From the IMG/VR virus record IMGVR_UViG_3300044949_001310, positions 1 through 26,918 of that record: DNA of 26,918 nt; one strand, 5' to 3'. The notes under the pieces are model-generated. The model was not told the DNA's origin. It saw nothing but the letters and a program-made list of their open reading frames with translations, and made no database searches. This DNA is from a virus. This document shows, piece by piece, positions 1,828-22,927 of this stretch; position 1 is the stretch's first letter; each line of letters opens with the position of its first letter. The position numbers and the translations under genes were made by a program.

Positions 1828-2318
1828 GCATGACGCTGCCGTTGACGTTCTACCGCGAGTGCCAGCGCCGGGGCTGGCTGATCGAAAGCGCGACGGCCGA
1901 CGGCTGCGTGGCAAAATGCCCTGAGCCCGGGTGCTCGGTGCGGATGGTGATCCGTGAGGGCGGCGTCATCCCGGCGCGGGCGTCCGAGGACGATGACGGC
2001 TGGATTGTCCTGAAGGGCGCGTCCCATGCCGTCGAGGTCGGCCGGCAGCGTCGGCAGCAGTTGCGTCTGTCGATTGCGGAGACCGAGGAGTGCGCGGGCC
2101 TGACGGCAGATCACATCGCCAAGGCCGAGACCGGCCGACAGTTCAACCTGGACACGGCCTGCGCGTGGTTCCCGGCGATCGGATACGACCTCGTGCTGAT
2201 CCCGCGACCGCTGCCGGCGATCACGCTTCGGGTTCTGGCTGAGACCCGCTCAAAGGAAGATTCTCGCGCGCGACGGTTTTCGCGAGGCGCGCGAGAGCCT
2301 CAAGACGAGCGGCGGTAA
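1824..2318 (+). CDS. XRE-like helix-turn-helix protein with N-terminal Cys motif
   Basis: 164 aa, ATG at 1824 overlapping the previous TGA. The N-terminus contains CVAKCPEPGC, a possible zinc knuckle. Residues ~75-130 read QLRLSIAETEECAGLTADHI, then AKAETGRQFNLDT, then IGYDLVLIPRP. That is the usual course of an XRE HTH (recognition helix, then a partner-choice segment, then the GYDLVLIPR ending found in many XRE antitoxin or regulator proteins). It is the last plus-strand gene before a convergent operon. Its final ~33 residues, after the domain end, overlap the 3' end of the minus-strand HTH gene by 98 bp and look poorly conserved (Arg/Glu-rich). Function is probably DNA binding; the target is unknown. 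Confidence 0.65.
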   Translation: MSMTLPLTFYRECQRRGWLIESATADGCVAKCPEPGCSVRMVIREGGVIPARASEDDDGWIVLKGASHAVEVGRQRRQQLRLSIAETEECAGLTADHIAKAETGRQFNLDTACAWFPAIGYDLVLIPRPLPAITLRVLAETRSKEDSRARRFSRGAREPQDERR

Positions 2319-2610
2319 CGGCGAGGGCCTCCGCGGCGCGCTCGATCTCGTCGCACATGGCCTGCGCCAGTTGCGTCTGGCGAACCTCTTTCGACGTGGC
2401 AAGGGCTGACACGGCCAGAAGGGCCGACAGGGGCATTGATGCGGGCACCTGGCGCCACTTGTAAATGGTCTGGGGGTGTATCTCGAGAACCTCGGCCAGA
2501 GCCGATACGGAGCCATAGCCGGGCGTCCCATAGAGTTGCTTCTGGTAGTCGAACAGCGCCTCGACCCGCTCCTGCGGGGTCATGGCCTTGGCCTCATGGG
2601 GTTGCAGCAT
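2221..2610 (-). CDS. HTH DNA-binding regulator, last gene of the minus-strand operon
   Basis: 129 aa. The ATG at 2610 (minus) is preceded by AGGATCAGGAC, a usable ribosome site. Residues ~30-60 (GSVSALAEVLEIHPQTIYKWRQVPASMP) form a helix-turn-helix with the wording typical of YdaS/Cro-like or transposase-type HTHs: a helix, then HPQTIYKW as recognition helix. The remainder is Ala/Glu-rich helix, perhaps for dimerisation. It sits at the end of the RadC-containing operon that runs opposite to the replication block, a position often held by a Cro- or repressor-type regulator. A role in the lysis/lysogeny or early/late switch is inference. Its 3' end overlaps the convergent plus-strand gene by 98 bp. 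Confidence 0.68.
   Translation of the reverse strand: MLQPHEAKAMTPQERVEALFDYQKQLYGTPGYGSVSALAEVLEIHPQTIYKWRQVPASMPLSALLAVSALATSKEVRQTQLAQAMCDEIERAAEALAVTAARLEALARLAKTVARENLPLSGSQPEPEA
2262..2296. terminator. Perfect 10-bp hairpin in the convergent gene overlap
   Basis: Arms TCTCGCGCGC (2262-2271) and GCGCGCGAGA (2287-2296) with a 15-nt loop lie exactly where the plus-strand HTH gene and the minus-strand HTH gene run into each other. No T-tract follows on either strand. It could act as a bidirectional pause or barrier rather than a classical intrinsic terminator. Confidence 0.35.
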
Positions 2611-3164: not shown

Positions 3165-3219
3165 TCATGCCTGGCGCATGTGATGGGGCCGGAGTGAACC
3201 GGCCCGCACAGATGCGTCA
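3165..3219 (-). repeat. Intergenic hairpin repeat, copy B
   Basis: This is a 55-bp copy of the repeat at 2924-2980. Again it starts precisely at the stop codon (TGA, 3217-3219) of the upstream minus-strand gene, here the RadC-like one. The stem GGGCCGG/CCGGCCC is at 3186-3192 and 3199-3205. The only changes from copy A are outside the stem-loop. Confidence 0.85.
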
Positions 3220-3690
3220 CATGAGACCGGCGGCTCGCATGGAGATATCGCGACCCGCCCCGACAATCACGTGGTCGTGGACGGTGATACCAAGCAATGC
3301 CCCGACCTTCACAACCTGTTTGGTCATCGCAATGTCAGACTCCGATGGAGTCGGATCGCCGGAAGGGTGGTTGTGAATCAGTATCAGGGCGCTGGCGTCG
3401 CAGAGGATGGCCTGCCGCATGATCTCGCGCGGATAGGCAGGCACATGATCAACCGTGCCGACCCCCATAAGGTGGTCGTCAAGCAGGCAATTCTTCCGGT
3501 CAAGAAAGAGGACGCGAAATTCCTCGCGCCGGGGGTTGCCGTGCTTCAGATGGACGTAGGCCAGAAGCGCGTCCCATGATGACAGAACATCGCGCTGCGG
3601 GCGGGTGAGGTAGGCCCGCGCGGCCTCAAGCATGGCTATCGGGCTCATGGCGGTCGAGTGGTCGAGAAGGTCAAGCTGCGTGGCGGGCAT
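3217..3690 (-). CDS. RadC-like JAB/MPN-domain protein, short phage form
   Basis: 157 aa. The JAMM-type metal motif is complete: HNHPSGDPTPSESD gives His106-x-His108 and Ser116-x-x-Asp119, with a likely upstream Glu57/58 in REEFRV. This is the RadC (UPF0758) JAB domain. The usual N-terminal helix-hairpin-helix is missing, replaced by ~35 residues, so it is a domain-only version as found on plasmids and phages. RadC's biochemical role is unsettled; in mobile elements it is often near anti-restriction or recombination genes. AGGAGAG lies just ahead of the ATG at 3690. It is the first gene of a four-gene minus-strand operon and is likely driven by the TTGACA promoter candidate at 3738-3766. Confidence 0.85.
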   Translation of the reverse strand: MPATQLDLLDHSTAMSPIAMLEAARAYLTRPQRDVLSSWDALLAYVHLKHGNPRREEFRVLFLDRKNCLLDDHLMGVGTVDHVPAYPREIMRQAILCDASALILIHNHPSGDPTPSESDIAMTKQVVKVGALLGITVHDHVIVGAGRDISMRAAGLM

Positions 3691-6988: not shown

Positions 6989-8505
6989 AGCCGACAAAGG
7001 ACTTCCAGTCGCGCTACGACGACGCGCGGCAGTTCCGGGATCAGGTGCGCCCCGAGATCGAGGACACCTATCGGTTCTGCGCGCCGTCGCGGCGCAACGA
7101 GTTCACCAGCAGCTACAACGCGCGCATCCCGAAAAAACCCGCCGACACGCTGGTCTACCACTCGCTCGGGGAAACCTCGGCCGCCGATCTTGCCGGCGAC
7201 ATCGTCACCTACTTCACGCCGTCGGAGGCGCACTGGTTCGAAATCTCCGTCCTGACGCCCGTGCCGGAAGAGATGCAGAATCAGGTTCTGGATTTCGCAA
7301 CACGGCGGGAACAGGACATCCGCGACCTCATCGCCGCGTCGAACTACAACGACATCGCGCCGCAATGGGCCTTTGAAGCCGCATCCCAGGGGACGCCGGC
7401 CCTGTGGGTGCAACTGGCCCACCAGACCCAACCCATCTTCTGCGAAAGCGTGCCCCCCTCCGAACTGCTCATCACGCCGGGGCATCTCGGCTACCTCGAC
7501 CGCTTCCGGCAGCAGACCGTCCGGGCCAGCACGCTGCCGGCCCTGTTCGCGCCATACCCGCAGATCAACCTCGAGACGCTCGAAATCCGCAGGAAGATCG
7601 AAAAGCCCGGCGCCGTCTGCACATGCGTCTGGGGCTTCTGGCTCGACTGGGCAGACGCGGGCAATCCGCAATGGCGGATGGAAGTGACCGTCGACGGCAA
7701 GCGCGTGACGCCGGAAGAACCAATCGTCCTCGGCCCCATGTCCGGTGCCTGCCCGCTTCTCGTCGGCCGCTTCAATCCTCAGCCCGGCCAGCCATGGGGG
7801 CGCGGCCCGGGCATGAAAGGGCTGCCCGACCTGCGCGTCCTGGACAAGGTCGAGGAAAGCATCCTCCTCGGACTGGAAGACCAGCTCAAGACCACGCTGA
7901 TCTATTCCAGCGACGCCTATCTCGACCTCTCCAAAGGCATCCGGCCCGGCACGGCATACCCGGCCGGCCCGCGCTTTACCAAGGATCAGGTCTACGAACT
8001 GAACAAGCAGACGAACCTCGAAAACTCGTATTTCACGCGCGAAGGCATGAGCCAGCGCATCCTCGAAATCTTCTATCAGACCGGGCCGCGCCAGCGCGGA
8101 GATACCCCGCCGACCGCGACACAATGGCTGGACGAAGCCCGCCGCGTGCAGGAACGCCTCGGCAAGCCGTCAGCGCCGCTCTGGTCCGAACTGATATTCC
8201 CCTTTGTCCAGCGCGTCGAATGGATCGGCGTGCAAGCCGGCCTGCTCGAAAACGTCATGATGATCGACGGGCAGGCAATCACGCTCAAGCCGATCAGCCC
8301 GCTTCAGAAATCGCAGAACCGCGACGACGTGCTGACCACGCGCGCAAACCTCCAACTGGCCTTTGAAATCCTCCAGGATCAGGTGCCGACCTACGTCGAC
8401 ATCACCCAGACGCTGCGAAACGTGATCCAGGCGTCCGGTGACCGCCTGATCGTCATCAACAAGGAACCCCTGCAAAATGAACCTGCCCCTGTGCCTGCCG
8501 GATGA
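6985..8505 (+). CDS. Portal protein (head-tail connector, T7 gp8-like)
   Basis: 506 aa, within the usual size for this family. The opening (KDFQSRYDDARQFRDQVRPE, then DTYRFCAPSR) and the later TPSEAHWFEIS and GRGPGMKGLPDL segments match the head-tail connecting protein family that forms the dodecameric portal of T7-like phages, including the PQPGQPWGRGPG stretch near residue 265. It sits at a capsid vertex, is the docking point for the terminase, and later binds the tail adaptor. It is coupled to the small upstream gene by overlapping stop and start, and its last 29 bases overlap the next small gene. Confidence 0.88.
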   Translation: MKPTKDFQSRYDDARQFRDQVRPEIEDTYRFCAPSRRNEFTSSYNARIPKKPADTLVYHSLGETSAADLAGDIVTYFTPSEAHWFEISVLTPVPEEMQNQVLDFATRREQDIRDLIAASNYNDIAPQWAFEAASQGTPALWVQLAHQTQPIFCESVPPSELLITPGHLGYLDRFRQQTVRASTLPALFAPYPQINLETLEIRRKIEKPGAVCTCVWGFWLDWADAGNPQWRMEVTVDGKRVTPEEPIVLGPMSGACPLLVGRFNPQPGQPWGRGPGMKGLPDLRVLDKVEESILLGLEDQLKTTLIYSSDAYLDLSKGIRPGTAYPAGPRFTKDQVYELNKQTNLENSYFTREGMSQRILEIFYQTGPRQRGDTPPTATQWLDEARRVQERLGKPSAPLWSELIFPFVQRVEWIGVQAGLLENVMMIDGQAITLKPISPLQKSQNRDDVLTTRANLQLAFEILQDQVPTYVDITQTLRNVIQASGDRLIVINKEPLQNEPAPVPAG

Positions 8506-12000: not shown

Positions 12001-14116
12001 GCCAAAGCGCGTCATCACCCAGCGGAACTTCTCGGCCGGTGAACTCCGCGATGCGTTTCTCGAACGCGATGACGTCGAGATGCGGCAGTTTTCGCTGCAG
12101 CGCGCGACGAATACGTTCATCGGTCCAACCCAGACCATCGCAGCACGGCCGGGGACTCGATATCTGCGCACCATCAACGGAGCGCGGCAGATCGTCGAGA
12201 TCAGACCGGCAGCGGGCCGAACCTACGCGCTTGTGATCGGCAATGAGAGGTTCGACGTCCTGAACGCCGACGGCACGACGGAATACAGCAGGGCGAGCGT
12301 CGCATGGTCTGATGCCGGCGCGTGCTGGGTGCTGCCGCTTGGCGCAGAAACCATCATCGGGCATCCGGATCACGGCATGTTCGTGCTGAGCTACAGCAAC
12401 GACGAATGGTCCTACGGCGCGTTCGAGTTCGCCGAAGGCGCCGGGAACACGACCTTGCAGCCCTACTTCAAGTTTCCGACGAAGGCCAAGATCAAGCCCT
12501 CGGCGACGACGGGCACGATCACTGTCGATGCAAGCCAATCTGCTTTTGCGGCAAGCCAGGTCGGGTCGAAAATTCGCTACGGCGAGCGCGAAATCCTCAT
12601 CACCGGCTTCACCAGCGCGACGAGGGTGACAGGAACTGTCGTGTCCGCTCTGCCGCCAAGCTATCGGCTGACCGTCTCGTCGACGGCCGAACTGAACGTC
12701 AACGATGTGGTGATCGGGCAGGACAGCGGGTTCACCGGGGTCATCACCTACATAGCCTCCGGCGGCACGACGTTCCGGGTCCTGACGCTTGAGAACTGGG
12801 ATGGGCCCCTTGCCAACGAGAAGATTTCAGCGCCGCAGGTGACACTCACCGTCACGGCCAAGACGCTGCTCGAACCCGAAGAGACGCAATACTGGGACGA
12901 GCCGCTGTTCTCGAACCGGCGCAAATGGCCGTCTGTTGCGGAGTGGGCGGCGGGGCGGCTGTGGCTGGCGGGCAGCGCCTCGAAGCGCAATGTGGTTGCG
13001 GCCTCGTCAGTCCGCGCCGCCAATGACTTCGAGATCGGCGCAGAAGACGACGACGCAATCCTGCGCACAGTCGGGCAGGATGGAACGCGCATCCGCCACA
13101 TCGTCGATGCAGGCGACATCCTGTTCTTCGCAGATCGCGGGATGCACTATCAGGAGCGGCGGCAGAACGGAAACCTCACCCCCAGCAACTTTGCCCCGAT
13201 CCTGTTTGACGAGCGCGGCTGTTCGACTGTCAGGCCAGCCATTGTCGAGCGCGGAGTGGTATTCGTCGAGGAAGGCGGGACCAGCATCTGCGCGGCGCTG
13301 CTCGACGGGAACGTCTATCTGACATGGACGGTTCGGTCGCTCACGACGTTCTGCTCGCACCTGATCAATGCGCCAGTGGCACTCTGCGGCCCGCCTCTGG
13401 CGCCCAATCGGCCAGACCGCCTGCTCCTTGTTGTCAACGGCAACGGCACCATCGCGGCCATGTCCTATACGACGATCCTGGGGCAGGAAAGCGTGGGCTT
13501 TGTGCCATGGACAACGGACGGCAACTGGGTCGGCGCAGCTCCGGTGTTTGGCGGGTATTGGGTGATGGTGGACCGCCAAACCGACACGGCTCGGCGGATG
13601 ATCGAGCGGCTCGACTTCGCGCAATACCTCGACAGCACGGTGATTGCCGATCCGCAATCGTCGCGCGCCGCGCCGCACCTTGAGAGCAAGACAGTGCATG
13701 TGCTGGACGGCGGCAACTATGCCGGAATGAGCGAGGTCGGGCCGAACGGCAACCTGATCGAGACGTTCCAGGACGTCGACCGCGAATGCAGCATCGGCCT
13801 GAACTTCACCGTCGAGGCGCGCGTCTGGCCCGCGGAAGTGATGGAGTCGTTTTCGGCCGGAATGCGGCGTCAGCGCGTTCTCAATTTCATCGTTTCGGTC
13901 CTGCGGACCCGGCATCTCGAAGTGCAATGCAATGACCATGCGAGGCAACTCGGCGGCTATCGCGTCGGCGACGATCTTTCCGACCCGGCGGCAGCGCGCA
14001 CGAGGGTCTACCGCGTGCCGGTATTCGGGCGGCGCGATCATGCGACACTGGCAGTCCGCCGCAGAATCCCCGGCCCATGGCATGTTCTGTCAATAGGACA
14101 GGAGGTTGAGGCGTAA
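11993..14116 (+). CDS. Tail tubular protein B / nozzle-like protein
   Basis: 707 aa, started at the GTG at 11993 (CGAGG seven bases upstream), overlapping the adaptor gene. The N-terminus (VITQRNFSAGELRDAFLERD, then RPGTRYLRTI) matches the nozzle-type proteins of podoviruses, in which a QxNFSxGE opening is followed by an arginine-rich P-G-TR strand. The middle has WPSVAEWAAGRLWLAGSASK, the W.s...F..GRL.LAGS stretch of gp12-like tail tubes. Further beta-rich repeats run to the end. It forms the tail tube together with the adaptor. The family call is good; the C-terminal third is divergent. Confidence 0.75.
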   Translation: MARPKRVITQRNFSAGELRDAFLERDDVEMRQFSLQRATNTFIGPTQTIAARPGTRYLRTINGARQIVEIRPAAGRTYALVIGNERFDVLNADGTTEYSRASVAWSDAGACWVLPLGAETIIGHPDHGMFVLSYSNDEWSYGAFEFAEGAGNTTLQPYFKFPTKAKIKPSATTGTITVDASQSAFAASQVGSKIRYGEREILITGFTSATRVTGTVVSALPPSYRLTVSSTAELNVNDVVIGQDSGFTGVITYIASGGTTFRVLTLENWDGPLANEKISAPQVTLTVTAKTLLEPEETQYWDEPLFSNRRKWPSVAEWAAGRLWLAGSASKRNVVAASSVRAANDFEIGAEDDDAILRTVGQDGTRIRHIVDAGDILFFADRGMHYQERRQNGNLTPSNFAPILFDERGCSTVRPAIVERGVVFVEEGGTSICAALLDGNVYLTWTVRSLTTFCSHLINAPVALCGPPLAPNRPDRLLLVVNGNGTIAAMSYTTILGQESVGFVPWTTDGNWVGAAPVFGGYWVMVDRQTDTARRMIERLDFAQYLDSTVIADPQSSRAAPHLESKTVHVLDGGNYAGMSEVGPNGNLIETFQDVDRECSIGLNFTVEARVWPAEVMESFSAGMRRQRVLNFIVSVLRTRHLEVQCNDHARQLGGYRVGDDLSDPAAARTRVYRVPVFGRRDHATLAVRRRIPGPWHVLSIGQEVEA

Positions 14117-14547
14117 TGCAGGCTGCACCGTTCATCGCACTCGGGTCACAGGCGCTCGGGTCATATGCGGAAGGTCGCGCCGCCATGGGGCAGGCCCGCG
14201 CGGAACAGCAGATGGCCCGGGCAAATGCCTATGTCGGCGAGACGCGGGCAATCCAGACGGGCACGGCGGCGGCGCAGGACCTGGCCGCGCAGATGGCCGA
14301 GATGCGCGCGGCGTTCGCGGCCAACGGGCAAGGAACGCCCGGGACGGGCGTGTTCTTTCAGGAACTGCGCAAGGCTCGCCAGCGGGACGCACGCATTGCG
14401 ATGGCCAACGAACGGCTGGGCGCGGCGGATTGGAGAATGCGCGGAGAGAACGCCATGGCGCAGGGGCGCGGCGCATATGCCGCCTCTCTGTTCCGCGCGG
14501 GCAAGTCGCTTTTCGAGATGGGCAATCTCTGGAACGGGCCGACATAG
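14116..14547 (+). CDS. Small internal virion protein (T7 gp14-like)
   Basis: 143 aa, start overlapping the previous stop by one base with AGGAGG just upstream. The N-terminus is a short hydrophobic segment (AAPFIALGSQALGSYAEGRAA), then long Ala/Arg/Met-rich helices (ARAEQQMARANAYVGETRA). An AFAANGQGTPGTGVFF turn sits in the middle, a sequence typical of gp14-type proteins. In T7 the counterpart is ejected first and forms the outer-membrane part of the DNA channel. It leads a block of four ejection-type genes here. Confidence 0.7.
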   Translation: MQAAPFIALGSQALGSYAEGRAAMGQARAEQQMARANAYVGETRAIQTGTAAAQDLAAQMAEMRAAFAANGQGTPGTGVFFQELRKARQRDARIAMANERLGAADWRMRGENAMAQGRGAYAASLFRAGKSLFEMGNLWNGPT

Positions 14548-17346
14548 ATGGCAGAAATCCGCAAGATCGTCAGGTCCAACCCGCTTTCGGCGTTCACGCA
14601 GGTGGCGCCGGCTGCGGGAACGGCGTTTGCGGTCCTCGCGGATACCGCCAACCTTGCCTATCAGACGCTGGAACCTCTGGCCGACGTCGAGATGGCGCGG
14701 CGCGGCGAAGAGGACAACCGCGAGCTTGTGCGGCAGCAGGTCGGGGCCAACTCGATCCCCGTTGCGCCGCTTGCGCCAGCCGGTCCTGACCTCTCGACCA
14801 TTGCGCCCGTGCCGCAGGGGTTTTCGGTCGAAGGCGCACGAGCGGCGATTGACCGGGCCGATGCGCAGATGGCCGGCGGTGGCCAGACGGCAATGCCGAC
14901 AGGCGGCGCGGGCGGCGACAGGCTGGCGGGCGACAACTGGCTGTCCTACGCCAACCAAAGCGCCACGCGAAACCAGCCGCTGTCGCCGCAACTGATCGAT
15001 GCCATGTCGTTTCTGCAAGGCATGGGAATTCGGATGGAGGTGTTCTCCGGTGGTCAGCCGGCCGAGGGGCCTAACCGTGTCGGGTCGACGCGCCATGACC
15101 ACGGCAATGCAGCGGACGTGTTCTTCTACGACAGCGCCAGCGGCCGGCGGCTTGACTGGCGCAATTCGCAAGACGTGCCGTTGTTCCAGGAAATCGTCAG
15201 GCAGGCGCAGGCCCGGGGTGTCACCGGCTTTGGCGCAGGCGACGGCTACATGCAGCCCGGGTCGATGCACATCGGCTTTGGCGATCCGGCCGTTTGGGGC
15301 GCGGAAGGCAAAGGCAGCAACGCCCCGGCTTGGCTCCGTGAGGCAGTCGGCGGCGCCACCATGACCGGATCGGCCGGCACGCCCGTCATGGCCGGCGGTG
15401 CGGGGTCCGACACGCTGGCGCCGACCGGCACGCCGCCGCCGACGATGGTGCGGACATCGCAAGGCAAGCTGGAGCCGCGCCTCTACAACCCGGCCGGTGG
15501 GCGCTTTGCGCAAATCTACAACGCCGCCGCAAAGATGACGGCCCTCTCGGAGTCGATGCTGGCCGGGCAGGCCGACATGATGAACCTGTCGGCGCAAATG
15601 CCGATGGACCCGGACGGCTTCATGCAGCAGGCCCGCGCCTACATCGACCAGACCGTCGCCAATGCCGATCCGATGCTGCGCCCCGATCTCAGGGCCAATC
15701 TCGAGACCGAAATGCAGCGCCGCTATCTCGGGATGGTGGACGAGCGTAACGATGACATTCGCCGCCGGGCGGAGAATGCGTCAGGTGCGCTGATCGACCG
15801 GTGGTCAGGCAACTACGTTGACGCGCTGGCGGCCGGCAACATCCCCGAGGCGCAATCGGCAAGGGCGCAGCTTGAGGACGCCCTGTATGCCCATGAGAGC
15901 CTCCCAGGGGCGTCGTGGACGCGGGAACAGTCGGTCAATGTCATCCTGCAAGCCGAGAGGCAGTCGCGGCGCGTGCAGGTTGATCGGGCGGCAGCACAGA
16001 CCGCCGAGTGGGAAAACGGCTTCGAGACCTCGATTGCGGCGCGCAAGGACGGCATGATCGGCGCGGCCGAATACCTGCTCGACAACCCCGCTGCCGTGGC
16101 CGCGCACCCCGATCTCGCCGAGGAACTGGCCGCGTGGACCGAGTTTCAGACGGCAATGCCGGGTTTCCGCGCAATGCCGCCGGGGCAGCAACGTGCGGTC
16201 GTCTCCGAGATGCGCAACGTGCCCGTCAGCGACAGATACCAGATCGCGATGGCGGACAAGGCCGAGGAAGTGGCGGCCGCATCAGAGAAGGCGTGGTCAG
16301 ATGACGCGATGGCCTACGCCAGCCACCTTGCGACGGTGTCCGATTTCCCGCCGCCGCCCTCTGTCCCGGCGTTTGACCCTGCAAACCCGGTCGCCTTCAC
16401 CGCGGCCCTTCAAGCCCGGCGGGACTATGCGCTGACGCTGCGCGATCAGGGCTACACGCGCGGCCCTGTCATTCTGTCGAACGAAGAGGCCGGCATGATC
16501 GGCTCGCAGATTGACGGCATGAACTCGGACGGCAAGCTGATCATCGCGGAAACGGTAGCGACGGTTCTGGGGCCGCAAGGGGCCGGGCCGGTGTTCGACC
16601 AGATCGCGCAGGATGACCCGGCGTTCCGGTTCGGTGGCCTGATGATGGCCGCAAGCCCGGCATTGAAGGGCACGGCCGCAAAGATCATCCGGGGGCAGGA
16701 CCTGCTTGACGCCAATCTTGCGACGGCGCCGGACCGGATTGCCGTCCCGGAGAACGTGACGGCGGCGCTGAATGGCGTGAACCTTGCCGACATGGGCGAC
16801 ATGCCGGCTGTCGTGCGCGCCTATCTTGCGGCAACCAAGAACTCCAAGAACGCCACACAGGGCGAAATCATGAGCGCGTGGCAAGCCGTTCTTGGCCAGT
16901 CCGAAGTCGATGGCGTCACTCGCGGCGGCGTCCAGAATGTCGGGCGTCATCAGGTGCTGTTGCCCCCGGCCGTGTCGGCCGACGATGTGGAGCGCGCGCT
17001 GGCGTCGGCGTTCTCCGGGCCTGCGGCGGAAACAGGCATGGCGCCGGTTCCTCTTGGCGGCGGCTGGATGCCGTCGTTCCTGCGCGCGACCCCGCCGACG
17101 ACGGCGCGACCCGAGGCATGGATGGCCGCTGCGGGGTCGATCCCCTACGCGCGCGGCGAACCGATGTCGTCGCTGCCCCTCAATGACAGGATATTGCGCC
17201 TGATCCCCGTCGGGCAGAACGAGCGGGGCGAATACATCTACAACATGACCGTCGATTACGGCGACGGCGCCGTGGTCACCGTCAACGATGAGCGCGGAAT
17301 GCTGCTCCGCGTCAACCTTGATGCCCTGATCGAGGCCGCGCGGTGA
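14548..17346 (+). CDS. Large internal virion protein with M15-like peptidase domain
   Basis: 932 aa, start directly after the previous stop. Residues ~140-255 carry STRHDHGNAADVFFYD (His182, Asp183, His184 region) and GYMQPGSMHIGFG (His near 241). Together these are the zinc and catalytic pattern of the VanY/M15 D,D-peptidase or Hedgehog fold. The domain probably opens peptidoglycan during DNA entry, as T7 gp16 does with a lysozyme-type domain. The remaining ~650 residues are long Ala/Glu-rich helices (e.g. EMQRRYLGMVDERNDDIRRR) without an assigned domain, as in ejection proteins. Ala/Gly/Pro-rich linkers border the peptidase. It ends in a GTGA overlap with the next gene. Confidence 0.75.
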   Translation: MAEIRKIVRSNPLSAFTQVAPAAGTAFAVLADTANLAYQTLEPLADVEMARRGEEDNRELVRQQVGANSIPVAPLAPAGPDLSTIAPVPQGFSVEGARAAIDRADAQMAGGGQTAMPTGGAGGDRLAGDNWLSYANQSATRNQPLSPQLIDAMSFLQGMGIRMEVFSGGQPAEGPNRVGSTRHDHGNAADVFFYDSASGRRLDWRNSQDVPLFQEIVRQAQARGVTGFGAGDGYMQPGSMHIGFGDPAVWGAEGKGSNAPAWLREAVGGATMTGSAGTPVMAGGAGSDTLAPTGTPPPTMVRTSQGKLEPRLYNPAGGRFAQIYNAAAKMTALSESMLAGQADMMNLSAQMPMDPDGFMQQARAYIDQTVANADPMLRPDLRANLETEMQRRYLGMVDERNDDIRRRAENASGALIDRWSGNYVDALAAGNIPEAQSARAQLEDALYAHESLPGASWTREQSVNVILQAERQSRRVQVDRAAAQTAEWENGFETSIAARKDGMIGAAEYLLDNPAAVAAHPDLAEELAAWTEFQTAMPGFRAMPPGQQRAVVSEMRNVPVSDRYQIAMADKAEEVAAASEKAWSDDAMAYASHLATVSDFPPPPSVPAFDPANPVAFTAALQARRDYALTLRDQGYTRGPVILSNEEAGMIGSQIDGMNSDGKLIIAETVATVLGPQGAGPVFDQIAQDDPAFRFGGLMMAASPALKGTAAKIIRGQDLLDANLATAPDRIAVPENVTAALNGVNLADMGDMPAVVRAYLAATKNSKNATQGEIMSAWQAVLGQSEVDGVTRGGVQNVGRHQVLLPPAVSADDVERALASAFSGPAAETGMAPVPLGGGWMPSFLRATPPTTARPEAWMAAAGSIPYARGEPMSSLPLNDRILRLIPVGQNERGEYIYNMTVDYGDGAVVTVNDERGMLLRVNLDALIEAAR

Positions 17347-20345
17347 CGTTCTTCCTGCGCGACGATGGGGCCGACCGGGTCGGCGACGGGCTGACCGGCG
17401 GACTTGCCACGGCGGCAGATGGTTTTGGCGCAGTTTGGCGGTCCACCTCAATGAGCGAGGGGTTCCTGAACTTCGAGCTCGGCCGCAAGAACGGCGTGGT
17501 CAGGCGCGAAATTGCGGACAGCATCAGATCGCGCGTCGGGCTGGACGCGCTGAATGACTACCTCGAAGCGACCAATGCCTATCAGGTGAACTTCGGGACA
17601 ATGGCTGGAGCCATGCCCCGCCCGCAAAGCGTCGAGGAGGCGGTCGGCACCTACGGCGTGGATGCGCTGCTCGGGGCGGCGCGACAGCTTGCAGAGCAGG
17701 ACCCTGCTGCATGGAGCGACGTCGACCTCAGCGACGAAGGCATTGACGCCGAGGCCCGTCGCCGCATCCGCGTCGAGTATGAGCAACTGGCGCTCGATGC
17801 GGCCCTGTCGCCGACGTCGACGTTCGGCCGACTGGCAGCCTCGTTCGGGTCGAGCATCTTCAACATCAAGACCCTGCCATGGCTTGTCGGCGGGCTCGGG
17901 GGTGCCGGGGTGAAAACCATTCTCGGCGTGGCCACTCGCGAGGCGGCGATCAACACGGCAATCGAAGGGACGCTTCTTCCAAGTCAGTATGACGCCGCGG
18001 AAACGCTCGGGATAGCGGCGCCAGGCGTCGTCAACGAGTTGACGCAGGCCGCGGTCATCGGCGCCGCTTTCGGGGCAACCGCCGAGGCGCTGGTGCGAGG
18101 GCTGAGCTACATCGGGACGCGCGGCGCCACGGTGCCCGGCGTCGACCCCGTGCGGCAGGAGGCGTTCACCAACGGCGCTGCGGACATCCTGATGACCTCC
18201 GACAACCCGGGGCAGGAAGCGGCCGTTCTCGCGCGACGCATGATGGCCGTGGAAGCCGAGGAGGCGGCAACGCGAGGGCTTGAGGTTCTCGACAACGACG
18301 CGATCATGGCCGTTCGCACAAACGCGGACCTGTTCCAATACAAGGACGGCGGTGATGCGCAGGGCGTTACCGACCGGTTGCAGCAAATTGAGGCTTGGGA
18401 CAACAACCGCACCGGCATTGCGCTGATCTACGAATATCGCGACGGGCGCCGCGAGATCGTCGATGGTCATCAGCGGCTGGGGCTGGCCAACCGCATGATT
18501 GCCAAGGGCCAGCAGGTCGAACTCCCGGCCCGCATTCTGCGCGAAGTGGACGGCATCACGCCTGCAATGGCGCGTCAGATCGGCGCGGAGAAGAACATAG
18601 CGGAAGGCACCGGCACGGCGCTGGACGCGGCCAAGGTGATCCGCGAAAGCGGTGCGACAGCGGCACAACTCAACCTTCCCGCCGCCAGTCAGCTTGTGCG
18701 TGACGCGGATGGGCTTGCGCGCCTGTCAGATGACGGTTTCCGCATGGTCATCAACGGGGTCGTCCCCGAGAGGACGGCCGCGGTTGTCGGGCGCCTTGTG
18801 GGCGATCAGGCGAGGCACGTTGACATTCTCGGCCTTCTGGCCCGCCTGAAACCGACGAACGCGGTTCAGACGGAATCCATCGTGCGGCAGGCCGCGGCGG
18901 CGGAAGTCCGGGAAACGCAGGCGACGCTGTTCGGCGACGAAGACGTGTCGGTCAACCTCTACATGGAGCGGGCGAAGGTTCTCGATCAGGCGCTTAAGGA
19001 CCTCGGCCGCGACATCACGACGTTCCGCACGCTCGACACGCGCGGCGAAACCATCACTTCGGCCGGGAACGTGCTCAACCCGGAGGCCAATGCAAGCCGA
19101 CTGACGGCGGACGAGCGGGCGCGGGCGTCGCTCATGCGGCAGGCCAACACAAAAGGACCAGTCAGCGATGCGCTCACAGCAGCCGCCCGATCCGTCAAAG
19201 ACGGCGGAAAAGTCACCGACGCTGCCCGCCAGTTCGTCAGCAATTTCCGTGCGCGAGATGGCGCTGAGGGAAGCGGGCCGATCACTGGCGGTTCTGGGGA
19301 TGGCGCTCGACCTGCGCAAGCAGCGCGCCAGTCAGAGCAAACCGCCATCGGAGAGCAATTCCTTGTCGACCAACCCGGCATCCGTCCCGACCCCGACAGA
19401 CCCGGCCTGATAAACACGCGCGGCCAAGGCATCCGTTTTCACGGCAGTCGCGGAAAAAAGCTGAACCAGAATCTGGACGAAGGCGCTTACTCGTCGCTGA
19501 ACTACTACGGGCAAGGCTTCTACACGACCGACGCGGTGGCGATAGCCGAAGGCTACGACAAGGGCGGCGGTATCTATGTCGTAAATGAAATACGGCCAGT
19601 CAATGCCTTTGACATGGAGCAGCCAATCCCAGACTTTCTGCGGGCTGCTGCTAATTCGATAGAGGGCGATGCAGAGGGCGTGGTTCAAGCGGCGCTTGAT
19701 GAAACCCGGCCTACGGTGCGTGAGTTCTATGACGAAATCCGTGAATACTCGCGCAGCTACCAAGTGCCCGCCGACGATGTTCAAGGCGTCTTTGAGGTGT
19801 TTGAGTATGTCTTTAAGGAAAACGGATTCAACGCATTGGATCACCGCGGCGGCGTGCTGAGCAAGAAGGCGGAACACTCGGTTCGCATTTACTTCGACCC
19901 ACACAATACGGTGGAAGTTCGGCCAATAGACAAGTCAGAGTTTTCTATGCCGGTTGCCACGGAGCGCACCGCAGCAGGAGAACAAACCCTCGTCGTCGGA
20001 GTAGCGCCAATCCGGCCTGTGGACAGGCTTGAAACGATGCAGAATGCGCCGATGACCGGACGGGCATTGCCGGCGGACGGAGGCCTGTTCGATCTTGCCG
20101 CCAGAGAGCAACTCGATTGGGTGAGCCAGCCCGGCGCTGCCGAGCGCGAGGCTCTTTTCGACAATCCGGCCAGCCCGCAGGCCGATGCGCTCTATTCGCA
20201 GATGGCGTCCGACGTGCGCGCGCAAATCGAAGCCGACACGACCCTGACGCCCGAGGAGCGCGCCAGCATCCAGTCCGACCTTGACGAACTCGATCTGGAA
20301 GAAGCCAATCTGGCGCTGGCCAAAATGTGCGGGATGGGATCATGA
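17343..20345 (+). CDS. Large polyvalent virion protein: ParB/DdrB-like plus ADP-ribosyltransferase-like domains
   Basis: 1000 aa, GTG start overlapping the previous stop (GTGA). Residues ~160-260 are hydrophobic helices (LPWLVGGLGGAGVKTILGVA), fitting a membrane-passing ejection protein. Residues ~340-440 contain EIVDGHQRLGLANRM (Asp374) and ARQIGAEKNIAEGTGTALDA, the ParB-like DdrB domain of phage polyvalent proteins. A low-complexity linker (~620-690) leads to residues ~697-860, with FHGSRGKK (His700), YYGQGFYTTD (Tyr727) and KKAEHSVRIYFDP (Glu844). That is an H-Y-E ADP-ribosyltransferase layout like the ART-PolyVal family, which would modify a host target with NAD. The DNA of this domain is near 50% GC (30/60 in two hand-counted lines), against 63-67% in flanking parts of the gene. 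Domain calls are by motif; target and injection are inferred. Confidence 0.75.
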   Translation: MTFFLRDDGADRVGDGLTGGLATAADGFGAVWRSTSMSEGFLNFELGRKNGVVRREIADSIRSRVGLDALNDYLEATNAYQVNFGTMAGAMPRPQSVEEAVGTYGVDALLGAARQLAEQDPAAWSDVDLSDEGIDAEARRRIRVEYEQLALDAALSPTSTFGRLAASFGSSIFNIKTLPWLVGGLGGAGVKTILGVATREAAINTAIEGTLLPSQYDAAETLGIAAPGVVNELTQAAVIGAAFGATAEALVRGLSYIGTRGATVPGVDPVRQEAFTNGAADILMTSDNPGQEAAVLARRMMAVEAEEAATRGLEVLDNDAIMAVRTNADLFQYKDGGDAQGVTDRLQQIEAWDNNRTGIALIYEYRDGRREIVDGHQRLGLANRMIAKGQQVELPARILREVDGITPAMARQIGAEKNIAEGTGTALDAAKVIRESGATAAQLNLPAASQLVRDADGLARLSDDGFRMVINGVVPERTAAVVGRLVGDQARHVDILGLLARLKPTNAVQTESIVRQAAAAEVRETQATLFGDEDVSVNLYMERAKVLDQALKDLGRDITTFRTLDTRGETITSAGNVLNPEANASRLTADERARASLMRQANTKGPVSDALTAAARSVKDGGKVTDAARQFVSNFRARDGAEGSGPITGGSGDGARPAQAARQSEQTAIGEQFLVDQPGIRPDPDRPGLINTRGQGIRFHGSRGKKLNQNLDEGAYSSLNYYGQGFYTTDAVAIAEGYDKGGGIYVVNEIRPVNAFDMEQPIPDFLRAAANSIEGDAEGVVQAALDETRPTVREFYDEIREYSRSYQVPADDVQGVFEVFEYVFKENGFNALDHRGGVLSKKAEHSVRIYFDPHNTVEVRPIDKSEFSMPVATERTAAGEQTLVVGVAPIRPVDRLETMQNAPMTGRALPADGGLFDLAAREQLDWVSQPGAAEREALFDNPASPQADALYSQMASDVRAQIEADTTLTPEERASIQSDLDELDLEEANLALAKMCGMGS

Positions 20346-22927
20346 GCTTTGAAGACTGCATTCAGGAGCACATCGACGCCGGCAAGATGGCCGAAACGTA
20401 TGGCCAGGAGGCGCAGAAGAAATGGAGGCGCGCGGCGCAGGCGCTGCAAGGCGAAGGCGTGCCGTGGCACGCTGCATCGCAGATGGCGCGCGACCGCGTC
20501 CTGACGCAACTGCAAGAGCAGGCGGCGCGCAAGAAGCACACCACCGCGATCCGGGCGCAACGAAACCTCGTGCGCCTCATGGAGATCAGGAACGCCGGCA
20601 GGGTGCCGGACCTGATGGACAAGATGACGCGCGCAGACTTCAAGGCGCGGGGAATCAAGACCGCTGCACTCGGGCGCATGTCCGCATTCCTTGAAAAAGC
20701 CAAGACCGATCCGGTGTTCTCAAGGAGCAGGGACCCGGCGCTGATTGAGGACGTGGTGCGAACAGGCGGGTTTGGCGAGGCCGTCGAGAATGGCGCGGCA
20801 AAGGCCTATGGCGGCGCGGTGGCCGAGGCTTTGGAGTGGCTGCGCCTGATGGCCAATATGCGGGGCGCCAACATCGGCAAGCTCGACAGCTACTGGCCCG
20901 TCACGCATTCGCGGCGCAGCATTCTCGATGCAGGTTACGAGGCTCTCCATGCGCGAACGGCGTCTTCCGGATCAAGGACGAAAGCACTGGTGGACATGCG
21001 CTTCAGCGCAGATGCGCGAGATGAGGCGCTTCAACTGGCATGGCCGATCTGGCGTGACGACATTCGTGCCCGTCTCGATTGGACGAAGATCGAGAATCCG
21101 GCCACGCTTCAACCATTCCAGGCAGAAGGGGCGCCAGTCCCGCCTGTCGAGGTTCAGGAGGCCTTCCTGAAAGAGGTGTTCGACAACATCGCTTTCGGCC
21201 GCGAGGCGCGCACCGTCGAATACGGCGCCGTGACCGGCACCATGACGGCAAACCGCCTCAGCCGGGAGCGTGTCCTGCACTGGGTGTCGGCCGACGCCTA
21301 TATGGAATACAACGCCCGGTTCGGAGAAGGCGCCCCGATGGACGCACTCATGAACCACATCCACACCATGTCGCGCGATATCGCCCTGATGGACGAATTC
21401 GGCCCGGACCCGAAGATGGGCCTCGATTTCGACCGGCAGGCCTGGGAGAACAAGGCAATGCAGGCCAACTCTGTGGCGCTGTCCGACAAGACGCGGCGGC
21501 AATACACCAGTGCGACGGCCATGATGCGCGTGCTGAACGGACCGGAGCCGCCGCAGACGGCGTGGCAGGAGTGGAACGCAACGTTCTTCGCGACGACGCG
21601 GCAAGTCATCTCGGCCGCGCAGCTTGAGCGCGCCGTCGTGATGGCGATTTCCGACACGGCCAGCATGAGGACGGCAGCCAAAGCCGTCGGGATGCAGCCC
21701 CGCAACATCCTGTCGACATGGGTGTCGATGATGAAGGGGTTGCCGAAAGACGAACTGGCGCGGATGCAATACATCTATCAGACGTGGTCTGATCCGGGTG
21801 TCACGCAGTCGCGCTTCATCAACGATGTCGGGGCGAAGCCATGGGCGCAGAAGCTCAACAACGCCTCGATGCGGCTGGGCGGTCTCGCCGGATGGACCGA
21901 TCGCGCCAAGGGTGAGGCCTACCAGTATTTCACCGGCAAGCTGGCCAGTCTCGCACGGAGCGAGTGGGAAGCCCTTGACCCGCGGCTGCGCGCGATGTTC
22001 GAGGCGCATCGGATCAATGCGCGCGATTGGGACGACTTCCGCGCGACCGAAGGCATGTTCAAGGGCGACAACGGCGCCACCTTCCTCATGCCGCCGTATT
22101 GGCGCGCGATGACGTCTCTGCCGGAGCCGCGCGCCGACGAAGTCTTCATGAAATTCGGCGCGGCGGTCGAGCAATACGTCGAGATGTCGGTGCCGACGCA
22201 ATCATTGATCGCACAAGCTGCACTGGACCCGGCGTCCTACGGGATGACGCGCGGCAGCATTTCCTACGAACTGGTCAAGTCTGTCGGGCAGTATAAGGGG
22301 TTCGTCGGCGCGATGACCGAGAACATGATCCGCATGGCGGCACGGCAGCCCGCCAAGGTCACGGCGTTCATGCTCGTTGCGCAGCATGTCGCCACGGCCG
22401 GGCTGCTGGCGGCGGTCAGCATTCAGGCGAAGGAAATTCTTGCCGGCCGGGACCCTCTGGACATGACGACGCCCGAATTCATGGTGCGCGCAATCATCGC
22501 AGGTGGCGGTCTTTCGATTGTCGGCGATCTGGCTCTGCTGAATGAGACCTCATCGGGCGGCGGCTGGCCGGCCTATCTTGCGGGGCCGCAGAACGCGGTC
22601 CTTGGCGAGGCCGCGTCGCTGACCGTTGGCAACCTCATCGAGGTCTTCAAGGACCTTCGCAACGAGGGGCAGATCGACACGAATTTCGTCCCCGAAGCGC
22701 GCAAGTTCATCGACCGGAACATCGTCCCTGAGCCGTGGTGGATCGGGCCTTTCTTTGACCGCATACTGGCCGACCAGTTCCAGATGCTTCTCGATCCCGA
22801 GAGCGTCGATGCGCTGGCGGAGGCGGAACAGCGGCGCCAGAACATGCGGGGCAATGCTTCATGGTGGCAGCCGGGGTCGGCCTTGCCGGCGCGGGCGCCT
22901 GATTGGCGGGCGGCGATGGGCCGATAG
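20342..22927 (+). CDS. Large internal virion/ejection protein with C-terminal membrane segments
   Basis: 861 aa, ATG at 20342 overlapping the previous stop (ATGA). A GTG at 20327 would extend it by five residues into the preceding gene and is less likely. The protein is helical and charged throughout (e.g. EAQKKWRRAAQALQGEGVPW), with Trp- and Met-rich stretches. Near residues 670-740 it has two hydrophobic segments (FMLVAQHVATAGLLAAVSI and MVRAIIAGGGLSIVGDLALL), and it ends with MRGNASWWQPGSAL. This architecture fits the last and largest ejection proteins of podoviruses and the polyvalent-protein-associated family. No enzyme motif was found. A 48-bp gap to the fibre gene follows. Confidence 0.65.
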   Translation: MSFEDCIQEHIDAGKMAETYGQEAQKKWRRAAQALQGEGVPWHAASQMARDRVLTQLQEQAARKKHTTAIRAQRNLVRLMEIRNAGRVPDLMDKMTRADFKARGIKTAALGRMSAFLEKAKTDPVFSRSRDPALIEDVVRTGGFGEAVENGAAKAYGGAVAEALEWLRLMANMRGANIGKLDSYWPVTHSRRSILDAGYEALHARTASSGSRTKALVDMRFSADARDEALQLAWPIWRDDIRARLDWTKIENPATLQPFQAEGAPVPPVEVQEAFLKEVFDNIAFGREARTVEYGAVTGTMTANRLSRERVLHWVSADAYMEYNARFGEGAPMDALMNHIHTMSRDIALMDEFGPDPKMGLDFDRQAWENKAMQANSVALSDKTRRQYTSATAMMRVLNGPEPPQTAWQEWNATFFATTRQVISAAQLERAVVMAISDTASMRTAAKAVGMQPRNILSTWVSMMKGLPKDELARMQYIYQTWSDPGVTQSRFINDVGAKPWAQKLNNASMRLGGLAGWTDRAKGEAYQYFTGKLASLARSEWEALDPRLRAMFEAHRINARDWDDFRATEGMFKGDNGATFLMPPYWRAMTSLPEPRADEVFMKFGAAVEQYVEMSVPTQSLIAQAALDPASYGMTRGSISYELVKSVGQYKGFVGAMTENMIRMAARQPAKVTAFMLVAQHVATAGLLAAVSIQAKEILAGRDPLDMTTPEFMVRAIIAGGGLSIVGDLALLNETSSGGGWPAYLAGPQNAVLGEAASLTVGNLIEVFKDLRNEGQIDTNFVPEARKFIDRNIVPEPWWIGPFFDRILADQFQMLLDPESVDALAEAEQRRQNMRGNASWWQPGSALPARAPDWRAAMGR

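What the first reader, a model, noticed from the sequence alone, without database searches (positions are those of the whole stretch)
17343..20345. Ejection-type virion protein carrying an ADP-ribosyltransferase-like domain next to a ParB/DdrB-like domain
Seen: His700, Tyr727 and Glu844 lie in the order and local wording of an ART H-Y-E site (FHGS, GQGFYTTD, AEHSVRIYF), and a ParB-like DGHQR lies at 374. Known: T4 injects Alt, an ART, and phage polyvalent proteins join such domains. Inference: the protein sits in the internal-virion block of a T7-like podovirus, so it may enter the host with the DNA and modify a host factor or silence defence at the earliest moment. ART plus ParB in this virion slot is the best candidate here for an undescribed system.
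Basis: partly seen in the sequence, partly recalled or inferred. Interest (0 to 1): 0.85.

Follow-up and report, generated by a model that had tools for sequence, protein, structure and literature searches.

The report
Swappable enzyme module in phage ejection-protein
This phage gene encodes a protein that probably rides inside the virus particle and enters the bacterium with the viral DNA; it carries an enzyme-like ADP-ribosyltransferase-fold module at a spot where sister phages carry quite different toxin-like enzymes or none, so phages seem to exchange injected weapons on a fixed carrier.

Summary
The ORF and motifs are real, but the interpretation needs correcting and is larger than stated. 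Residues 689-865 are an ADP-ribosyltransferase (ART) fold: AlphaFold pLDDT 92, pTM 0.88; its profile hits curated ART-PolyVal members at 1e-17; the best solved match is an ejection protein resolved in the cyanophage A-4L pre-ejectosome. Across 31 non-redundant relatives H700 and Y727 are invariant, but E844 is not (E in 6); the neighbouring H845 is invariant, so the site reads H-Y-H, not H-Y-E or the H-Y-D of polyvalent ARTs. The DGHQR core (about 323-637) belongs to a large podovirus family, but is not DdrB-ParB by any test; ParB kinship rests on motifs. The gene sits in a conserved slot: in 52 of 54 loci the next virion gene abuts or overlaps it. In that slot the backbone is fixed and the C-terminal module is exchanged: 38 Tas1/RelA-like, 33 zeta-kinase-like, ART in the window and one relative, 10 with none. 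One contig pair is 96-98% identical in DNA on both sides of completely different modules. I read it as a virion-delivered carrier with a swappable effector, here an ART. Injection, activity and target are inferred. New variant of polyvalent/MuF-type effectors.

The parts
17343..20345 (+). Carrier gene, 1000 aa (P0001); GTG start overlaps the stop of the upstream gene by 4 bases (GTGA)
17364..18341 (+). N-terminal backbone (residues 8-333), shared with sibling phages
   Evidence: family profile hits it at E 2.8e-40
18309..19253 (+). ParB-like core (residues 323-637); phrog_10691 E 2.5e-83
18462..18476 (+). DGHQR motif (residues 374-378)
   Evidence: D 38/39, G 39/39, H 39/39, Q 38/39, R 39/39
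19407..19937 (+). Exchangeable module of this phage: ART-fold domain (residues 689-865)
19440..19442 (+). H700, first strand, invariant 31/31
19521..19523 (+). Y727, second strand, invariant 31/31
19875..19877 (+). H845, invariant 31/31, first residue of the predicted strand 845-850; the adjacent E844 (19872-19874) is not conserved
19938..20342 (+). C-terminal tail with wording shared with sibling phages (GEQTLV.GV.P..., GGLFD..., Cys near the end)
   Evidence: read by eye; weak profile hit (18.8 bits, position not checked)
14548..17346 (+). Upstream virion gene P0002 (932 aa); several sibling loci have a relative in the upstream position
20327..22927 (+). Downstream virion gene P0003 (phrog_684, virion structural protein); ATG at 20342 also overlaps by 4 bases
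14116..14547 (+). Internal virion protein-like gene (phrog_418, E 0.0023)

Best explanation
The gene encodes an internal virion (ejection) protein of a short-tailed phage, built as a fixed carrier plus an exchangeable effector. The carrier is an N-terminal backbone, a ParB-like core and a short tail. The effector is inserted between core and tail. In this phage it is an ART-fold domain of the ART-PolyVal kin with an H-Y-H site. Packed in the particle, it probably leaves with the DNA and acts in the host in the first minutes, most likely by using NAD+ to modify a host factor. Sister phages fill the same place with Tas1/RelA-like (alarmone synthetase-type) modules, zeta-toxin-like kinases, or nothing, so the module is an optional, arms-race-driven accessory and not a part needed for ejection. 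Shown here: ART fold (predicted with high confidence), conserved slot, module exchange. Inferred: virion location and injection of this protein, NAD+ use, target.
For: ART fold: model pLDDT 92.4, pTM 0.88; best PDB match 9k3a_B, prob 1.00, then RES toxin and diphtheria toxin catalytic domain at weak E-values; many ART-PolyVal-named viral matches; 28 of 33 relatives match DUF3990 (best 1.9e-8), 18 of 33 ART-PolyVal (best 1.7e-5); the profile hits curated PF18760 members L191 and L192 at 2.2e-17 and 7.5e-17. Slot: the next ORF is a P0003 homologue spaced -14 to +1 bases in 52 of 54 loci. Virion: 9k3a_B is Anabaena phage A-4L gp27, solved in the pre-ejectosome, and A-4L has the same late gene order. 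Exchange: L069 (RelA-like) and L070 (zeta) are 97.9% identical over 7140 bp before and 96.2% over 3393 bp after unrelated modules; L052 versus L059 shows absence or presence; counts. Module identities: Zeta_toxin above cut-off, 1.7e-12 to 6.6e-35; Tas1 (6ox6) E 6.7e-22. Same whole architecture in L129.
Against: The acidic third residue of H-Y-[EDQ] ARTs is missing, so activity is uncertain. The window domain itself does not pass any Pfam cut-off. No virion proteomics exists for this phage; it is a metagenomic record. P0003 and A-4L gp26 show no detectable sequence kinship, so the equivalence with A-4L is by position and fold only. Only two carriers with an ART module in this exact architecture were found (window, L129).
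Confidence: 0.68

Rival explanations
1. The ART-fold domain is enzymatically dead and serves as a structural or ligand-binding part of the ejection machine, as the related domain in the A-4L pre-ejectosome might.
For: No conserved acidic third residue; a related fold is an ordered part of the A-4L pre-ejectosome.
Against: Likely pocket residues (H700, N720, Y722, G723, Y727, Y738, H845) are invariant at only about 28-46% sequence identity to the window. The same place is taken by unrelated enzyme-like modules or by nothing in sister phages, which a needed structural part would not allow. A-4L keeps an acidic residue in its strand (DTTLVINPD).
Confidence: 0.22
2. The modules are aimed at competing phages or bacteria (superinfection exclusion or killing of rivals), as polymorphic toxins are, and not at the newly infected host.
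For: Module repertoire (zeta, Tas1-like, ART) resembles that of bacterial toxin systems; MuF toxins of prophages are a precedent (PMC5576092, PMC12226406); a weak Cro/YdaS-like regulator match in the window hints at a temperate phage.
Against: No room for an immunity gene next to the carrier in 52 of 54 loci, whereas MuF apk2 genes are followed by immunity genes (PMC12226406). The carrier is in the ejection block, so the cell it reaches is the one infected.
Confidence: 0.15
3. The module is a counter-defence enzyme that consumes or diverts NAD+ or nucleotides to blunt NAD- or nucleotide-based host immunity, and does not modify a host protein.
For: All three enzyme classes in the slot are kin of NAD+- or nucleotide-using enzymes; Iyer and colleagues argue that phage NAD-ADPr domains often counter such immunity (PMC9503650).
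Confidence: 0.25
4. The motif resemblance is chance and there is no ART domain.
For: Single-sequence Pfam scan finds nothing.
Against: High-confidence model with ART-fold matches and profile links at 1e-17.
Confidence: 0.02

Closest known systems
Polyvalent proteins of phages (Iyer et al. 2017, PMC5512222)
   Same: Several enzyme-like domains in one virion-associated protein encoded among late genes; ART, ParB-like, RelA/SpoT and zeta-like domains are all listed there
   Different: Here a fixed ejection-protein backbone with one exchanged module per protein, in one conserved slot, mostly 1000-1300 aa; ParB-like core is not DdrB-ParB; ART site is H-Y-H, not H-Y-D
MuF polymorphic toxins of temperate phages (PMC5576092, PMC12226406)
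   Same: Conserved virion-linked N-terminal part and variable C-terminal toxin-like domain, including (p)ppApp synthetases
   Different: No MuF domain; exchanged module is internal, followed by a conserved tail; no adjacent immunity gene; podovirus ejection block
Cyanophage A-4L gp27 in the pre-ejectosome (PDB 9k3a chain B)
   Same: Same position in the gene order, ART-like fold in the C-terminal part, next gene also in the entry (9k3a chain A)
   Different: No detectable sequence kinship of backbone or neighbour; 1717 aa; third motif keeps D
T4 Alt
   Same: Virion ART injected with DNA (from literature, PMC5512222)
   Different: R-S-E site; different carrier

Membership tests
ART-PolyVal / Tox-ART-HYD2 (PF18760) | ART fold | tested here: met
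   model mb0132493ed87, Foldseek
ART-PolyVal / Tox-ART-HYD2 (PF18760) | His in strand 1 and Tyr in strand 2 | tested here: met
   H700 and Y727 invariant 31/31, in predicted strands 22-25 and 50-53 of the model
ART-PolyVal / Tox-ART-HYD2 (PF18760) | Asp in strand 5 | tested here: not met
   no conserved acid; E844 in 6/31; H845 invariant
ART-PolyVal / Tox-ART-HYD2 (PF18760) | Pfam cut-off | tested here: not met
   window alone: no hit; 18 of 33 relatives hit at E <= 1, best 1.7e-5; reverse profile link 2.2e-17
ART-PolyVal / Tox-ART-HYD2 (PF18760) | NAD+-dependent transferase activity | not testable with these tools
   needs biochemistry
DdrB-ParB (PF18763) | Pfam or profile-profile match | tested here: not met
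   0 of 39 relatives in the list shown; hhalign probability 0.1%; DdrB profile finds P1 DdrB and L089 kin but no carrier
ParB/Srx superfamily | ordered ParB motifs including conserved Arg | tested here: inconclusive
   colinear 133-column alignment with ParB_N, but hhalign probability 0.3%; DGHxR invariant or nearly so; a 1022-aa viral protein annotated ParB/Sulfiredoxin matches the ART model
Polyvalent phage proteins | two or more effector-like domains in one late-gene protein | tested here: met
   ParB-like core plus ART, between tail and virion genes
Polyvalent phage proteins | delivered with DNA | not testable with these tools
   inferred from slot and A-4L structure
MuF-type polymorphic toxin | conserved N-terminal part, variable C-terminal effector | tested here: met
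MuF-type polymorphic toxin | MuF domain | tested here: not met
   no Pfam match
MuF-type polymorphic toxin | adjacent immunity gene | tested here: not met
   carrier and next virion gene overlap or abut in 52 of 54 loci
T4 Alt | R-S-E active site | tested here: not met
   H and Y invariant at sites 1 and 2

The most novel reading that the evidence does not exclude
A family of podovirus ejection proteins works as a general injection carrier for exchangeable toxin-like enzymes without immunity genes, and its ART version uses an H-Y-H site outside the described H-Y-[EDQ], H-H-h and R-S-E classes, possibly with altered chemistry or substrate.
Probability: 0.35. Interest if true: 0.82.

Novelty: new variant of a known kind. 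Interest (0 to 1): 0.66.

Why it matters
If true, one protein slot in many environmental podoviruses tells, by which module it holds, how a phage subdues its host in the first minutes: ART, alarmone-synthetase-like enzyme or zeta-like kinase. Near-identical phages differing only in the module are natural experiments. It also gives a testable non-MuF carrier by which phages deliver enzymes into bacteria, and a catalytically odd ART subfamily.

Tried and rejected
H-Y-E triad: rejected by conservation. DdrB-ParB membership: rejected. Canonical ParB_N: direct search hit only an unrelated minus-strand place in the window, profile-profile not significant. Tandem duplication of the linker flanking the ART module as a recombination site: DNA alignment score within the shuffled range. 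First ART model from 4 sequences was poor (pLDDT 64) and was replaced. Sequence search of PDB with ART and ParB profiles found nothing meaningful. DUF3990 survey in 200 relatives of the Delftia genome gave one weak hit, so the third residue in DUF3990 was not examined. Homology of P0003 with A-4L gp26: none detected. The match of zeta and RelA-like C-termini by hhalign (99.7%) I ascribe to shared flanking linker and tail, not to the catalytic parts; not tested separately.

Full report
Observation. The window is a 26,918-base IMG/VR virus record. Its GTG start overlaps the preceding stop and its stop overlaps the next start. Neighbours are a terminase large subunit, a portal-position gene (PHROG head-tail adaptor), a gene in the capsid position, two tail proteins, a phrog_418 internal virion protein, P0002, then after the target P0003 (phrog_684, virion structural), a beta-helix tail spike and an endolysin. 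That is a short-tailed phage late block; no RNA polymerase gene was searched for, so 'T7-like' is fair only for the head-tail layout.

Family of the carrier. Residues 302-689 match phrog_10691 (E 2.5e-83). A scan of viral contigs found at least 533 relatives of the ParB-like core, of which 80 were fetched; a second scan with another centre gave 80, partly overlapping. A profile of the N-terminal parts of the smaller relatives hits window residues 8-333 at 2.8e-40 (the window was itself in that profile's input, so this value is inflated, but single BLAST alignments already reach back to residues 119-199 in several siblings). In 54 loci where both genes could be placed, the next ORF is a P0003 homologue, spaced -14 to +1 bases in 52. 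So the protein occupies a fixed slot.

ParB-like core. DGHxR is kept in 38-39 of 39 non-redundant cores. No member shows PF18763 in the list returned, the DdrB profile does not find the carriers although it finds P1 DdrB, and profile-profile comparison is negative. Against ParB_N the alignment runs colinearly through the motifs for 133 columns but is not significant. I call it ParB-like by motif only.

ART module. Relatives of residues 682-859 turned up first in L001 and L002, then in a Delftia prophage giant protein, L089, that also carries a true DdrB-ParB domain (2.4e-18) and LPD37/38. Two further scans gave several dozen more loci. Thirty-one non-redundant domains (window included) show H700, G701, N720, Y722, G723, Y727, Y738, Y745, D797, G828, G836, G837, H845 and V847 invariant; E844 is E in 6, P in 14, A in 6. 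With 33 sequences AlphaFold gives pLDDT 92.4, pTM 0.88. H700 lies in the first strand, Y727 in the second, and H845 is the first residue of the strand 845-850 (model residues 169-174; window residue = model residue + 676). Foldseek's best PDB match is 9k3a_B (E 9.6e-6, prob 1.00, TM 0.56 on the query), followed at weak E-values by the RES toxin and the catalytic domain of diphtheria toxin, both ART-fold by established knowledge. In the viral library several matches are named ART-PolyVal, and one 1022-aa match is named ParB/Sulfiredoxin. Twenty-eight of 33 relatives match DUF3990 and 18 match ART-PolyVal. The profile hits two proteins that pass the PF18760 cut-off at 2.2e-17 and 7.5e-17; these two also have a His at what reads as the corresponding place (VKHRVYIAFDP, VRHRVYIAFDP), so the His variant exists inside that family. 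Published ART classes are H-H-h, H-Y-[EDQ] and R-S-E (PMC9503650), and polyvalent ARTs are H-Y-D (PMC5512222).

Virion evidence. 9k3a_B is Anabaena phage A-4L gp27 and 9k3a_A is gp26, described by the entry as the pre-ejectosome. A-4L's late genes run terminase, portal, scaffold, capsid, tail tubular A and B, two small genes, internal protein gp28, gp27, gp26, essentially the order of the window. gp27 reads LYHGT...WGSGTYFS...DTTLVINPD near its C-terminal part. Backbone and neighbour show no sequence kinship, so this is positional and fold-level support that ART-like domains sit in such particles. The A-4L paper itself is not held.

Module exchange. Between core and tail the sibling proteins differ completely. 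Zeta_toxin passes its cut-off in L022, L040, L074, L080 and L083. The RelA-like module profile hits Tas1 (6ox6) at 6.7e-22; single sequences give at best RelA_SpoT 0.012. L069 (RelA-like) and L070 (zeta) are 97.9% identical in DNA over 7140 bp upstream and 96.2% over 3393 bp downstream with no match in between, and 90-100% identical per 40-column block in protein before the module and 97% in the last block. L040 and L058 repeat the pattern at lower identity; L052 lacks the module that L059 has. These contigs carry different data-set numbers. Among 85 distinct complete proteins up to 1700 aa: 36 RelA-like by score plus 2 below my score threshold that read as the same by eye (L240, L260), 33 with a P-loop taken as zeta-like, 10 short without module, 1 ART (L129; the window makes two), 1 with a second ParB-like motif (L216, by eye), 2 without a recognisable module. 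Classes by P-loop and score are my assignment; Pfam was run on representatives only. These counts are of sequences, not independent events.

L129 repeats the whole architecture of the window: ParB-like core 345-657, ART 720-903, then a P0003 homologue. L118 joins the core and the ART directly.

Mechanism. Shown: fold by prediction, slot, exchange. From the literature: P1 Dar proteins and T4 Alt enter with DNA (PMC12810830; PMC5512222). Inferred: this protein is packaged and ejected, and its module uses NAD+ on a host factor early. The missing acid leaves room for a dead or altered enzyme. Lack of space for an immunity gene next to the carrier argues that the target is the infected host.

Comparison and novelty. 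Every domain type has been listed in polyvalent or MuF proteins. What I did not find in the searches made is a podovirus ejection protein with exchanged modules in one slot. The library holds only open-licence papers, so absence there is weak evidence. I rate it a new variant of a known kind.

Noticed in passing
L069 and L070, about 7141-8081: Nearly identical phage contigs differ in the effector module (RelA/Tas1-like versus zeta-like), a clean allelic replacement.
   Followed up: yes
L075, L019, L059 and kin: The RelA-like module resembles Tas1, a (p)ppApp synthetase, at profile level (6ox6, E 6.7e-22).
   Followed up: partly
L216:5068-7695: Carrier whose C-terminal part holds a second, ParB-like motif (VDGHHR) instead of an enzyme module.
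   Followed up: no
L205:20116-25269 (Anabaena phage A-4L gp27): ART-like domain in a protein annotated only as tail protein and solved in the pre-ejectosome.
   Followed up: partly
L089:3921-12659: Delftia prophage giant protein joins DdrB-ParB, the H-Y-H ART, LPD37 and LPD38.
   Followed up: partly
L003:9832-21570 (Ruegeria phage 45A6): 3912-aa polyvalent protein with the same ParB-like core plus helicase, methylase and acetyltransferase domains, annotated hypothetical.
   Followed up: no
L004 (Dunaliella viridis virus SI2): Listed host is an alga, but the record is classed as Caudoviricetes and carries this podovirus gene pair; the true host is probably a bacterium.
   Followed up: no
window 3217-3690 (-): RadC-like JAB protein gene (E 3.4e-40).
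   Followed up: no
window 2221-2610 (-): Weak match to Cro and YdaS-like regulators, a hint of a temperate phage.
   Followed up: no
window 14548-17346: P0002 has a STRHDHGNAADVFF stretch resembling M15-type peptidoglycan peptidase wording, but no Pfam hit.
   Followed up: partly
phrog_21 versus window residues 331-620: The family named portal protein matches the ParB-like core at its far C-terminal end, probably a label from a fused member.
   Followed up: no
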